Source of the DNA: Ruminococcaceae bacterium R-25
Lineage (GTDB): Bacteria > Bacillota > Clostridia > Saccharofermentanales > Saccharofermentanaceae
Reading direction: 5' to 3'
DNA: 64,000 nt
Assembly: GCA_003149065.1 (NCBI GenBank)
Contig: QGFZ01000002.1
Location: 620,001-684,000 of the forward strand
The notes below the pieces were generated by a model. It was not told the DNA's origin and did no database searches. It saw nothing but the letters and a program-made list of their open reading frames with translations. A program made the position numbers and the translations under genes. Of this stretch, positions 6,702 through 18,478 are shown piece by piece. The stretch's first letter is position 1; each line of letters opens with the position of its first letter.

Positions 6702-9317
6702 ATGGCATTTTTGTCAGGCCTTTACACTTTAATAATCTCGCCGCTGGAACTTCTGTTTGAAGTCATTTTTTCCATAGCAAACAGAGTTACAGGCAATGCC
6801 GGTGTTTCAATTATTGTTCTAAGTATTGTTGTCAACTTCCTGGTTCTTCCGCTCTACAAAAGAGCTGATCAGCTGCAGGCTGAGGAACGTGATATCCAGT
6901 CTAAGATGGCATACCGCATTAAGCGCATCAAGAAGACATTCAAAGGTGACGAGCGCTTTCTGATGCTTCAGGAGTACTACCGTATCAACAATTATAAGCC
7001 CATCTATGCGCTTAAGAGTTCCGCTTCTCTGCTTCTTCAGATCCCGTTTTTCATAGCAGCCTACAGATTATTATCCGGAATGCAGATCCTTCAGGGTTTC
7101 TCTTTCGGTTTTATTTCGGATCTGGGTAAAGAAGATGCTTCTTTTATGGTGGGAAGCTTTCCGGTTAATGTTCTCCCGATTCTGATGACACTGATAAATG
7201 TAATTTCCGGCATTATCTACACAAAGGGACACCCGTTAAAGGAAAAAATACAGGTCTACGGATTGGCTCTGGTCTTTCTGGTATTGCTCTACCATTCACC
7301 GGCGGGGCTTGTTTTCTATTGGCTCCTGAATAATACATTCTCGTTAGTCAAAAACGCTATTGGCCATTTGAGGAAACCGAAAACAAAGGAAGAGTCAAAA
7401 AAGAAAAAACTCGTTTACGATAAAGGCGGATACGCCCTTGTCCTGCTCTCAAGCGCATCCCTTGCATTGCTTACAGGTGTTTTGATTCCTTCGGATGTCG
7501 TAGTTAAGAATCCTGCTGAGATGATAAACAATTTTATTTCGGATCCGCATAGCCCGGTCAGCTATATTGTCATCAGCGCGCTTATGGCAGCAGGCGTATT
7601 TCTTATCTGGCTTCAGGTGTTCCTGTATCTGCTCAAAACGGGAAAGAAGACGATGTGCGCTCTTTCCGGTATTGCAGTTGTAAGTGTCGTTAACTATGTT
7701 GCCTTTAATAAGAATTTCGGTTTTATCACGAGCAAACTTATATATGAGAACGTCGTAAGTTTTGAGTTGACTGAGATCCTTATAAATATTGCTGTCGACA
7801 TTTTAATCCTGGCCATCATTATCTTCATTGCGTATAAATGGAGCAGAGTTGTCAAAATCCTGATGGCGGGAGCAGTTTTGGTCATTGCATGTCTTTCCAT
7901 AATCAATATCACAGTGATATCGGAAAGAATCGCAAATGAGGATTACAAGTACAGCAATACTGCCGAAGAAGTAGCGATACCTTTGTCAACCACCGGAAAG
8001 AATGTCGTGGTTATAATGCTCGATAAGATGAACGGTTCTTATGTTCCTTATCTGTTTAATGAACGTCCCGACCTTGTCTCAAAATTCGACGGATTTACTT
8101 ATTATCCCAATACAGTCTCGTTCGGAAAGTATACGAATATTGCATCTCCTGCTTTATATGGCGGATATGATTATACTCCCGACAGGATCAATGCACGTTC
8201 AAATGAGGCTCTGGTGGATAAACACAATGAAGCACTTCTTACGATGCCTCTTATATTCTCTGAAAACGGTTGGAATGTAAGTGTAGTTGACCCGTCTTAT
8301 GCGAACTACCAGTGGAAACCTGACTTAAGCATTTACGATCAATACGAAGGAATTAATGCTTATCACATGTCCGGCGTATTCAATTTTAAGGAGCCGCTTC
8401 TTGTAGAAGGCGGAGAGGATCTGGAACACCGTCTTAACCGTAATTTCTTCTGCTATGGAGTTATGAAGGCATTGCCGTATGCCTTGCAGAAGTATGTTTA
8501 TGATGGCGGTGACTATTTCCAGTCAGGTTCGGAAGAAACTATCTTCCTGGGCAATGCATCCGGTATTCATGCACAGGTAGGAATCAATGAGCTGCACATA
8601 AAAGAACATGCTGCTTTAGACTCATTAAGCGATGTAACACGTGAAGCCCAGGACGGAAAGAACTGTTTCTTTATTATCTCCAATAAGTCAACACATGACC
8701 TTTTCCTGTTAAAGGAGCCTGATTATGCACCGGTATCAAGCGTAGACAATACTGCTTATGATGCTGCGCACATGGAGCGCTTTACCGTTAACGGCGTAAC
8801 GATGAACATGGATTCCGATTTTTGCTGTTATGCAGCATATGAATGCAGCATGGAATCTTTGATCTCACTTGCCAAGTGGTTTGATTATCTCCGCGAAAAC
8901 AACATGTATGACAATACCAGGATAATAATTGTGTCCGATCACGGTTACGGAATGAAACAGTTTGAAGATTTCCTCATCAGCGATCCGGAATTTGATGCAG
9001 AGGCTGTAAATCCCGTTCTCATGGTCAAGGATTTTAACAGCACGGGATTTACAACATCCATGGATTTCATGACGAATGCTGACACTCCTACTTTAGCGTT
9101 CAAGGGAGTAGTAGATAATCCGGTCAGTCCTTTTACCAACAATCCGATCTTCCAGGACGTAAAATCAAAGCGTGTATTGATCTATACTTCGGATCTGGCG
9201 AACGTCAATGATAATAACGGAACGCAGTTCGTTGATCCGGAAGCTTTCTGGATCGTCGCCGGTAATAACATATATGACAAAAAGAATTGGAGCGTATATA
9301 CAGGAAAAGACATTTAA
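6702..9317 (+). CDS. YidC/Oxa1-like domain fused to an LTA-synthase/sulfatase-like domain
   Basis: 871 residues from ATG 6702. Residues about 1-225 are YidC/Oxa1-like: five hydrophobic segments, LVLPLYKRADQLQ after the first core helix, and LLQIPFFIAAYRLLSG. Residues about 245-415 add further transmembrane helices. From about 430 the protein is an alkaline-phosphatase-superfamily domain like LtaS or phosphoethanolamine transferases: VVVIMLDKMNG (metal ligand D441), FGKYTNIASP (candidate nucleophile T478) and IIIVSDHGYG (D746, H747). By analogy the C-terminal domain would act outside the membrane on a polyprenyl, lipid or glycan phosphate. In the YidC part, the position of the conserved groove arginine appears to be Asn45, so ordinary insertase activity is doubtful. 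The gene is monocistronic. The activity and substrate of the fusion are unknown. Confidence 0.85.
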   Translation: MAFLSGLYTLIISPLELLFEVIFSIANRVTGNAGVSIIVLSIVVNFLVLPLYKRADQLQAEERDIQSKMAYRIKRIKKTFKGDERFLMLQEYYRINNYKPIYALKSSASLLLQIPFFIAAYRLLSGMQILQGFSFGFISDLGKEDASFMVGSFPVNVLPILMTLINVISGIIYTKGHPLKEKIQVYGLALVFLVLLYHSPAGLVFYWLLNNTFSLVKNAIGHLRKPKTKEESKKKKLVYDKGGYALVLLSSASLALLTGVLIPSDVVVKNPAEMINNFISDPHSPVSYIVISALMAAGVFLIWLQVFLYLLKTGKKTMCALSGIAVVSVVNYVAFNKNFGFITSKLIYENVVSFELTEILINIAVDILILAIIIFIAYKWSRVVKILMAGAVLVIACLSIINITVISERIANEDYKYSNTAEEVAIPLSTTGKNVVVIMLDKMNGSYVPYLFNERPDLVSKFDGFTYYPNTVSFGKYTNIASPALYGGYDYTPDRINARSNEALVDKHNEALLTMPLIFSENGWNVSVVDPSYANYQWKPDLSIYDQYEGINAYHMSGVFNFKEPLLVEGGEDLEHRLNRNFFCYGVMKALPYALQKYVYDGGDYFQSGSEETIFLGNASGIHAQVGINELHIKEHAALDSLSDVTREAQDGKNCFFIISNKSTHDLFLLKEPDYAPVSSVDNTAYDAAHMERFTVNGVTMNMDSDFCCYAAYECSMESLISLAKWFDYLRENNMYDNTRIIIVSDHGYGMKQFEDFLISDPEFDAEAVNPVLMVKDFNSTGFTTSMDFMTNADTPTLAFKGVVDNPVSPFTNNPIFQDVKSKRVLIYTSDLANVNDNNGTQFVDPEAFWIVAGNNIYDKKNWSVYTGKDI

Positions 9318-17875: not shown

Positions 17876-18478
17876 ATGGGTATAATTAAAAAAATAGTTT
17901 TTGGTGATCCGAGTTTTAACGAGAGCCAGGAGAAGAAGCGTAAGCTTTTTATGTATTTGGTAAGCGGCGGTCTCACAACTGTTGCAAACTGGGTTGTCTA
18001 TATTATTTTCGACCTGTTGGTCAAAGCTGACATGATGGTGTCACTCTTTAGCCTTGAATTCTCACTTAAGATTGCAGTCAAGCAGATCGTCGGATGGATC
18101 GTTGCAGTCCTTGTCGCATATGTCCTGAACAGAGTCACGGTATTTAGATCAAAAGGCAATGTTTTCAGAGAGCTTATTGCTTTCGCCGGCGCCAGAGTAT
18201 TGTCATTCCTGGTTCTGGAATTAGGAGTCATGTACCTCATGATCTGGATCTGCGAATTGATCACAGGCGTTCCTGCATCATCACCTATGACCATGATCGG
18301 TTCATTCGCATTCACATACGATTATCTGGTAAAGCTAATTAACTGCATTTTTGTAATTATTGCAAATTATGTGCTGAGCAAACTCATGGTCTTCAAGAAG
18401 AAGGATATGGTCGATTACAATGCACAGCCTGAGCAGAAACCGGAAGAATCTTCCGGGAAGGAAGAAGCCGATGCCTGA
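17876..18478 (+). CDS. GtrA-family membrane protein
   Basis: 200 residues, ATG 17876. Four transmembrane helices with typical GtrA phrases: LFMYLVSGGLTTVANWVVY, AVLVAYVLNRVTVFRSKG and ANYVLSKLMVFKKK. GtrA-like proteins are thought to flip or present polyprenyl-linked sugars in cell-surface glycan synthesis. A charged Glu/Lys-rich C-terminal tail ends inside the start of folC (8-bp overlap). Its position between surface-protein genes and folC gives only a weak hint of an envelope role. Confidence 0.87.
   Translation: MGIIKKIVFGDPSFNESQEKKRKLFMYLVSGGLTTVANWVVYIIFDLLVKADMMVSLFSLEFSLKIAVKQIVGWIVAVLVAYVLNRVTVFRSKGNVFRELIAFAGARVLSFLVLELGVMYLMIWICELITGVPASSPMTMIGSFAFTYDYLVKLINCIFVIIANYVLSKLMVFKKKDMVDYNAQPEQKPEESSGKEEADA

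What the first reader, a model, noticed from the sequence alone, without database searches (positions are those of the whole stretch)
6702..9317. YidC-like domain fused to an LTA-synthase/sulfatase-like domain, with the groove arginine apparently lost
The N-terminal 225 residues align by eye with YidC/Oxa1, but the position of the conserved hydrophilic-groove Arg (as in Bacillus YidC, compared from memory) is Asn45. The extra membrane helices and an extracytoplasmic alkaline-phosphatase-fold domain (D441, T478, D746-H747) suggest a new use of the insertase fold, perhaps as a lipid or polymer conduit feeding a phospho-transferase. This could be an undescribed envelope-polymer enzyme.
Basis: partly seen in the sequence, partly recalled or inferred. 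Interest (0 to 1): 0.8.

Follow-up and report, generated by a model that had tools for sequence, protein, structure and literature searches.

The report
Insertase fold in surface-tailoring enzyme cassette
In many gut and rumen bacteria a protein fold that normally threads proteins into membranes has been joined to an enzyme that decorates the cell surface, probably to carry lipids bearing phosphocholine or phosphonate groups across the membrane.

Summary
Window 6702-9317 encodes 871 aa: a YidC/Oxa1 five-helix core, five more helices, and an extracytoplasmic alkaline-phosphatase-fold domain with an invariant Thr/Asp/His set; the AlphaFold2 model (pLDDT 89.8) shows both folds. N45 does sit at the groove-arginine site, but that clue is weak: 5 of 8 housekeeping YidCs examined also lack a positive residue there.

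The family is large (96 of 115 genomes of this genome's family), patchy elsewhere. A TagF-like CDP-alcohol phosphotransferase is adjacent to 76 of 105 fusions. Genes for CDP-choline or CMP-phosphonate lie within 8 kb in 14 of 77 named loci and in 11 of 18 genomes of a second family, some as one operon. In five genomes the YidC domain is fused to the TagF-like enzyme instead, beside a stand-alone phosphatase-fold half.

Best reading: a three-module tailoring cassette. The TagF-like enzyme loads phospho-X on a lipid, the YidC-like groove moves it out, the ectodomain transfers it to a surface polymer. Cassette and chemistry are well supported by gene context; lipid transport is inferred, nothing was tested at the bench. 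The window's own copy has no adjacent partner.

The parts
6702..9317 (+). YidC-LtaS-like fusion gene, 871 aa
6702..7367 (+). YidC/Oxa1-like core, residues 1-222 (five membrane helices)
   Evidence: PF02096 E 2.7e-22; 3wo6 TMt 0.71, rmsd 4.0 over 212 columns
6834..6836 (+). N45, at the site of the YidC groove arginine
   Evidence: alignment; N 142, S 4, Q 3, T 1, gap 2 of 152
6858..7001 (+). cytoplasmic hairpin (C1 region), residues 53-100, with invariant K77, F80, G82, Y93, Y98
7368..7421 (+). basic cytoplasmic linker, residues 223-240
   Evidence: mean 9.0 K/R over 110 rows; entropy 2.71 bits
7422..7934 (+). five further membrane helices, residues 241-411
   Evidence: model helices; PbgA aligned over 232-870 but loosely, rmsd 15.1
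7992..9314 (+). extracytoplasmic alkaline-phosphatase-fold ectodomain, residues 431-871
8022..8024 (+). D441, probable metal ligand
   Evidence: invariant 110 of 110; role by analogy
8133..8135 (+). T478, probable nucleophile
   Evidence: invariant 110 of 110; role by analogy
8694..8696 (+). H665, probable phosphate ligand
   Evidence: invariant 110 of 110; role by analogy
8937..8942 (+). D746-H747, probable metal ligands
   Evidence: invariant 110 of 110; role by analogy

Best explanation
The gene belongs to a three-module surface-tailoring cassette. (1) A cytoplasmic, membrane-tethered TagF-like phosphotransferase takes phospho-X (phosphocholine, aminoethylphosphonate, probably also glycerol phosphate) from CDP-X or CMP-X and loads it on a membrane lipid or lipid-linked acceptor. 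(2) The YidC-fold domain, with a neutral polar groove (S41, N45, T163, N166, W207, N210, N211 nearly invariant), lets the charged headgroup slide to the outer leaflet. (3) The LtaS/EptA-like half, with a Thr nucleophile, moves phospho-X from the lipid to an extracellular polymer. Shown by computation: the domains, the conserved catalytic set, the operon partner, linked CDP-X genes, and two fusion topologies of the same three modules. Inferred: a lipid as carrier, the YidC domain as conduit, the order of steps, the acceptor. The window copy has no adjacent partner and would have to work with a TagF-like protein encoded elsewhere (two others lie beside its paralogues).
For: Partner: in the 77 named loci 76 of 105 distinct fusions have a same-strand TagF-like gene within 200 bp (67 within 20 bp), 10 more within 6 kb. 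It matches PF04464; its model is GT-B-like, with the TagF-like capsule polymerase Cps3D the best Foldseek and profile hit. Fusion and partner distances correlate (r 0.83 over 78 pairs; best of 2000 shuffles 0.18). CDP-X genes within 8 kb: 14 of 77 named loci, 11 of 20 loci (11 of 18 genomes) of a second family, 2 of 2 further genomes (the sets overlap in at least one genome). One-strand operons: FUS-TagF-LicC-AEPT-PepM-Ppd, PepM-FeADH-Ppd-FUS-TagF, LicC-choline kinase-LicB-FUS-TagF, PntC-TagF-FUS. Second topology: YidC-TagF fusions (4 complete; a fifth cut by a contig end) lie with a stand-alone homologue of the C-half in 5 of the 9 genomes that have one. The two sets of YidC domains are separate clades (100/100 and 100/99). 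The YidC helices are the best conserved part (0.76 bits against 2.08 for the other helices and 1.61 for the ectodomain). E. coli YidC scrambles lipids in vitro (PMC10491306 section 5).
Against: No biochemistry. The window gene and its best-matching named relatives L014 and L015 have no adjacent TagF-like gene. In 63 of 77 named loci no CDP-X gene of the kinds sought lies within 8 kb. Co-occurrence with PepM over 115 genomes is confounded by ancestry (p 1.4e-6 for all, 0.0047 without three genera), and in this genome PepM lies far from all three fusions, with LicD nearby. The within-locus test of partner specificity was weak (0.24, -0.01, 0.39, 0.00, 0.76). The distance correlation is not corrected for species ancestry. 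Nothing here shows that the YidC domain moves lipids.
Confidence: 0.5

Rival explanations
1. The YidC domain is an assembly aid: it stays an insertase or chaperone (for the attached half, for the TagF-like partner or for another membrane protein of the pathway), and lipid transport is done by something else.
For: Hairpin and groove architecture are kept. Housekeeping YidCs with Asn at the groove site exist in these lineages, so Asn need not abolish insertase function; R366N E. coli YidC works with an aromatic residue at 517 (PMC8920935 section 5).
Against: A normal yidC is present in this genome and in 7 of 8 others checked; up to 8 or more fusion copies per genome are more than a chaperone needs; other enzymes of the kind need no such aid; the domain appears in two fusion partners of one pathway.
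Confidence: 0.22
2. The C-half is an ordinary LtaS-type enzyme that takes glycerol phosphate from phosphatidylglycerol; the TagF-like gene and CDP-X genes serve a separate polymer, and the YidC domain is a scramblase for phosphatidylglycerol or diacylglycerol recycling.
For: Fold like LtaS, LtaP, EptA, MCR-1; this genome has no other PF00884 protein, so no separate LtaS by that test; one relative is linked to a TagD-like cytidylyltransferase.
Against: Tight operon with TagF-like in most fusions and with choline or phosphonate genes in many; YidC-TagF fusions tie the YidC domain to the CDP-X enzyme.
Confidence: 0.15
3. The TagF-like enzyme builds a phospho-polymer inside the cell, and the YidC domain is a channel for the chain, which the ectodomain caps or anchors outside.
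For: PF04464 enzymes are polymerases in teichoic acid and capsule synthesis (one search hits Cps3D and TarL); the YidC domain is fused to either enzyme.
Against: CDP-choline and CMP-AEP carry end groups without a free hydroxyl for chain growth (general chemistry); the groove of YidC is open to the lipid and not a closed pore (PMC8920935 introduction, outline).
Confidence: 0.08

Closest known systems
YidC/Oxa1/Alb3 insertases (PF02096)
   Same: Sequence family, five-helix core, cytoplasmic hairpin, conserved groove Trp
   Different: Fused to a transferase half; N/S/Q/T instead of Arg/Lys in the groove (as in some housekeeping YidCs); several paralogues per genome; not in the rnpA-yidC locus
LtaS, GacH, EptA/MCR, PbgA/YejM (membrane alkaline-phosphatase superfamily; GacH recalled, not tested)
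   Same: Helices plus ectodomain of that fold, invariant Thr/Asp/His set
   Different: 10-15% identity to LtaS, LtaP and YejM structures; operon with CDP-X enzymes; YidC domain in front
TagF/TarL/Cps3D CDP-alditol phosphotransferases (PF04464): the partner
   Same: PF04464 domain; GT-B-like model; Cps3D best hit
   Different: About 410-450 aa with an N-terminal YIDPGTG helix, or fused to a YidC domain
Lic phosphocholine and Pnt phosphonate tailoring (LicA/B/C, PntC, PepM-Ppd-AEPT)
   Same: Genes for CDP-choline or CMP-AEP beside surface enzymes (PMC6697681 passages)
   Different: TagF-like plus YidC-LtaS stand where LicD would be expected; no LicD hit in 4 of 6 lic- or PntC-linked named genomes

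Membership tests
YidC/Oxa1 insertase | PF02096 sequence match | tested here: met
   E 2.7e-22, 79.9 bits, cut-off 35
YidC/Oxa1 insertase | five-helix core fold | tested here: met
   Model pLDDT 89.8; 3wo6 TMt 0.71, rmsd 4.0 over 212 columns, prob 1.00
YidC/Oxa1 insertase | positively charged groove residue | tested here: not met
   0 of 150 fusion rows with a residue; but 5 of 8 housekeeping YidCs examined lack it too
YidC/Oxa1 insertase | insertase activity | not testable with these tools
   needs complementation or an insertion assay
LtaS/EptA-type membrane phosphotransferase | membrane helices followed by an extracytoplasmic alkaline-phosphatase-fold domain | tested here: met
   outside location from helix count and charge bias, not by experiment
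LtaS/EptA-type membrane phosphotransferase | Thr nucleophile and Asp/His metal ligands | tested here: inconclusive
   D441, T478, H665, D746, H747 invariant in 110 of 110; equivalence to LtaS residues is recalled, not superposed
LtaS/EptA-type membrane phosphotransferase | phospho-headgroup transfer from a lipid | not testable with these tools
   needs biochemistry
Lic/Pnt surface-tailoring pathway | linked genes that make CDP-choline or CMP-phosphonate | tested here: met
   for part of the family: 14 of 77 loci, 11 of 18 genomes; not at the window locus
Lic/Pnt surface-tailoring pathway | LicD phosphotransferase | tested here: inconclusive
   no hit in 4 of 6 lic- or PntC-linked named genomes (three of the four are MAGs), hits in the other 2 and 4 in this genome; in G432 LicD lies directly before the fusion
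TagF-like partner | PF04464 gene adjacent | tested here: met
   76 of 105 fusions; 2 of 3 fusions of this genome; not the window copy

The most novel reading that the evidence does not exclude
The YidC insertase fold was recruited at least twice as a lipid-headgroup conduit: a lipid charged from CDP-X is passed through the groove straight to an attached or adjacent phosphotransferase. This would be the missing downstream machinery of bacterial phosphonate tailoring and of LicD-less phosphocholine tailoring, and the first insertase-fold protein whose job is to move a biosynthetic lipid.
Probability: 0.45. Interest if true: 0.93.

Novelty: new variant of a known kind. Interest (0 to 1): 0.8.

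Why it matters
PMC6697681 (passages seen) says that most bacterial phosphonate capacity serves cell-surface tailoring, and that the steps after activation are unknown. This family supplies concrete candidates for those steps and, in some genomes without a LicD hit, for phosphocholine transfer. It also gives a natural test of the claim that insertases scramble lipids (PMC10491306): here the fold is fused to enzymes that would need a lipid moved. The cassettes occur in rumen and gut Clostridia, in up to eight or more copies per genome.

Tried and rejected
Arginine loss as evidence of a new function: rejected as a strong clue, because housekeeping YidCs of related genomes lack it as well. Vestigial YidC domain: rejected, its helices are the best conserved part. 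Ordinary sulfatase: disfavoured, the invariant residue is Thr, whereas sulfatases use a modified Cys or Ser (recalled). The top structural matches are phosphonate monoester hydrolase and choline sulfatase, which happen to suit the substrates inferred, but LtaS, LtaP, YejM and many sulfatases follow within about 3 Z units, so I draw nothing from it. PbgA is aligned over both helices and ectodomain only loosely (rmsd 15.1). Viral origin: 99 stretches matched a pattern in viral contigs, none a relative.

One search (C-half of the window protein, 291 genomes) found only fusions in its 24 listed matches; with a divergent query found stand-alone C-halves, so the negative was too narrow. One search undercounted partners because a longer shadow ORF hid a TagF-like gene; one search replaces it. 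One search labelled three YidC-LtaS rows cut by locus ends (L214-L216) as YidC-TagF; one search uses the mended labels. A 356-aa 'PntC' hit beside the stand-alone C-half in L198 was not counted, as it is too short for both domains. The tree of YidC domains has 31 rows, 200 columns, two long canonical branches and a midpoint root; grouping of YidC-TagF with canonical YidCs has only 83/78 support, so two recruitments are likely, not proven.

Is it in print? Searches of the held library for YidC with sulfatase, lipoteichoic acid synthase, fused, CDP-glycerol, LicD, phosphonate, teichoic acid, flippase or domain fusion (for Saccharofermentans) listed no paper whose title or start of abstract describes such a fusion; only listed papers could be judged and subscription papers are not held.

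Full report
What is there. Window 6702-9317 (+) is an intact 871-aa ORF. Pfam finds 60KD_IMP (YidC) at 34-219 (E 2.7e-22) and Sulfatase at 433-753 (E 2.4e-6), both over their cut-offs. The AlphaFold2 model on 95 aligned relatives has mean pLDDT 89.8 and pTM 0.84. In Foldseek its N-terminal part matches B. halodurans YidC 3wo6 (TMt 0.71, rmsd 4.0 over 212 columns) and E. coli YidC 6al2 (rmsd 3.7); the rest matches phosphonate monoester hydrolase, PbgA, MCR-1, LtaS and LtaP, and with VIA-align LtaP 4uop at Z 19.7, rmsd 4.1 over 307 residues. Helix count and charge bias put the hairpin and linker inside and the ectodomain outside. So the protein reads as YidC (five helices) plus a complete LtaS/EptA-like enzyme (five helices and ectodomain).

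The groove residue. N45 aligns with E. coli R366 and the B. halodurans Arg. Over 152 distinct fusion N-termini: N 142, S 4, Q 3, T 1, gap 2. But of 8 housekeeping YidCs (each in what reads by eye as an rnpA-yidC locus) three have Asn (L205, L206, L207), two Tyr (L203, L204), two Arg (L001, L202) and one Lys (L201). PMC8920935 (abstract, sections 5 and 6 read) calls the residue strictly conserved, and shows that R366N works in E. coli when residue 517 is Trp, Phe, Asn or Ser, while S. mutans R73Q with native Trp does not. The fusions have Trp at that site (151 of 151 rows with a residue). Arg loss therefore neither proves nor excludes insertase function.

The domain is under strong constraint. 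Mean column entropy over 110 fusions is 0.76 bits in the five YidC helices, 2.08 in the other five helices and 1.61 in the ectodomain. S41 (149 of 149 rows with a residue), T163, N166, W207 and N210 (151 of 151 each) and N211 (149 of 151) make a polar, neutral set. Catalytic D441, T478, H665, D746 and H747 are invariant in 110 of 110.

Distribution. This genome (3.07 Mb, 7 contigs, no name given) has three fusions and one normal yidC (for others), and no PF00884 protein beyond the three fusions. 96 of 115 genomes of its family have a match at E 1e-30 or better, many with several. Elsewhere it is patchy: 3 of 398 genomes sampled across the phylum, this genome included; 12 of 391 across the class, 9 of them of the same genus with this one; 18 of 397 in the family of G360 (17 of 334 genera), whose named look-alikes are Lachnospiraceae. 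In genome contigs 295 stretches encode a relative; the best 80 gave 77 loci, mostly rumen and gut MAGs labelled Saccharofermentans, Ruminococcaceae, Oscillospiraceae and Lachnospiraceae, with isolates such as Butyrivibrio sp. XPD2002, Mediterraneibacter agrestimuris, Hominifimenecus microfluidus and Clostridium punense.

The partner. In those 77 loci, of 105 distinct fusions 76 have a TagF-like gene on the same strand within 200 bp (67 within 20 bp, often overlapping), 10 within 6 kb, 2 farther, 9 none but near a contig end, 8 none. It has a PF04464 domain, an N-terminal YIDPGTG helix, a GT-B-like model (pLDDT 88.9) and Cps3D as best profile hit (E 1.9e-8) and first Foldseek hit; many other GT-B proteins follow closely. 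Distances of 78 adjacent pairs correlate (r 0.83), not corrected for ancestry. In this genome the other two fusions have the partner beside them. In L016 and L017 the window locus holds TagF-like plus fusion(s) between the same neighbours, whereas only 77 bp separate the window fusion from the upstream gene: the partner was probably lost here.

The chemistry. Genes that make CDP-choline (choline kinase, LicC-like NTP transferase, LicB-like EamA, or an HTH-NTP transferase-choline kinase fusion) or CMP-phosphonates (PepM with cytidylyltransferase domain, Ppd, transaminase; PntC-like) sit beside the pair (Pfam). Within 8 kb: 14 of 77 named loci (choline kinase 8, PepM 5, PntC-like 2, one locus in two classes); 11 of 20 loci from 18 genomes of the second family (8, 2, 1; one of them, L170, 6.7 kb away on the other strand); and both loci of G432 and G871. 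These sets were found by searching for the fusion alone; they overlap, as G1048 is the Hominifimenecus genome of L078. A further genome has a TagD-like cytidylyltransferase between TagF-like and a divergent fusion (L176). L157 is one operon FUS-TagF-LicC-AEPT-PepM-Ppd; L167 is PepM-FeADH-Ppd-FUS-TagF; L171 is LicC-choline kinase-LicB-FUS-TagF. At one gene per 2.5 Mb about 0.43 would be expected in the 1.07 Mb of flanks, against 5 PepM and 5 stand-alone choline kinases (a rough yardstick, loci are not independent). Across 115 family genomes fusion and PepM co-occur (84 both, 12 fusion only, 6 PepM only, 13 neither; p 1.4e-6, or 0.0047 without three genera). LicD was not found in 4 of 6 lic- or PntC-linked named genomes; three of these four are MAGs.

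Second topology. A search of 270 genomes with the divergent fusion found stand-alone C-halves in 9 genomes. Beside them, in 5 of the 9, lies a TagF-like enzyme with a YidC domain at its own N-terminus (L193, L194, L197, L200: PF02096 E 9e-26 to 2e-32 plus PF04464 E 3e-11 to 2e-15; L196 cut by a contig end), twice with PntC. The other 9 of 14 stand-alone loci showed no such neighbour. G694 has both topologies. The same three modules thus occur as [TagF]+[YidC-LtaS] and as [YidC-TagF]+[LtaS], with YidC domains from two clades and different groove residues (Asn-type and Lys). This ties the YidC domain to the pathway rather than to one enzyme, and is the strongest evidence here.

How it probably works. 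LtaS and EptA take headgroups from lipids in the outer leaflet (established, recalled). The linked enzymes make CDP-X in the cytoplasm. Something must put phospho-X on a membrane carrier and bring it out. TagF-like fits the first step, the YidC domain the second, the ectodomain the third. E. coli YidC scrambles lipids in vitro and all Oxa1 members simulated did so (PMC10491306, passages and section 5). Steps two and three, and the carrier, are inference. I put 0.5 on the full mechanism; that the protein is an extracytoplasmic transferase in a CDP-X-dependent surface pathway is more certain (about 0.8).

Known or new. The parts are known families; the combination and the role of the insertase fold I did not find described in the library searches listed under Tried and rejected. 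PMC6697681 (passages) names LicD-like transferases near phosphonate genes, mentions neither YidC nor sulfatase, and calls the later steps unknown. I file it as a new variant of a known kind (Lic/Pnt-type surface tailoring), with a bolder reading in the section on the most novel reading.

Noticed in passing
L203, L204, L205, L206, L207 (housekeeping yidC, about 1200-2700 of each locus): Housekeeping YidCs of five Lachnospiraceae-like genomes have Tyr or Asn at the 'strictly conserved' positive groove site.
   Followed up: partly
L134:6981-7964 and L167:6554-7681: An iron alcohol dehydrogenase sits between PepM and Ppd where the AEP transaminase is expected, which suggests hydroxyethylphosphonate instead of AEP as X.
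   Followed up: no
L042:66-18122 and L027:245-12772 (one overlapping region): Tandem array of six or more fusions with a single TagF-like gene; one copy is split into two overlapping frames, by decay or assembly error.
   Followed up: no
L131:8659-9954 (G000:C1:882661-883953): This genome makes its own phosphonate: PepM, transaminase, LicC-like and LicD-like genes together; PepM matches in 90 of 115 genomes of the family.
   Followed up: partly
L155:6900-7691: In G432 a LicD gene takes the place of TagF directly before the fusion, with the AEP genes behind it and a TagF-like gene farther on.
   Followed up: partly
L172:7512-9284, L166:15489-17267: Single-chain HTH + NTP transferase + choline kinase proteins, i.e. 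a CDP-choline maker with its own DNA-binding domain.
   Followed up: no
L169:12370-17199 and L170:2086-6837: BCCT choline/betaine-type transporter, MttB trimethylamine methyltransferase and a LicC-like gene next to a TagF-fusion pair.
   Followed up: no
window 17876-18478: A small membrane protein that by eye resembles GtrA-type lipid flippases; no search was made.
   Followed up: no
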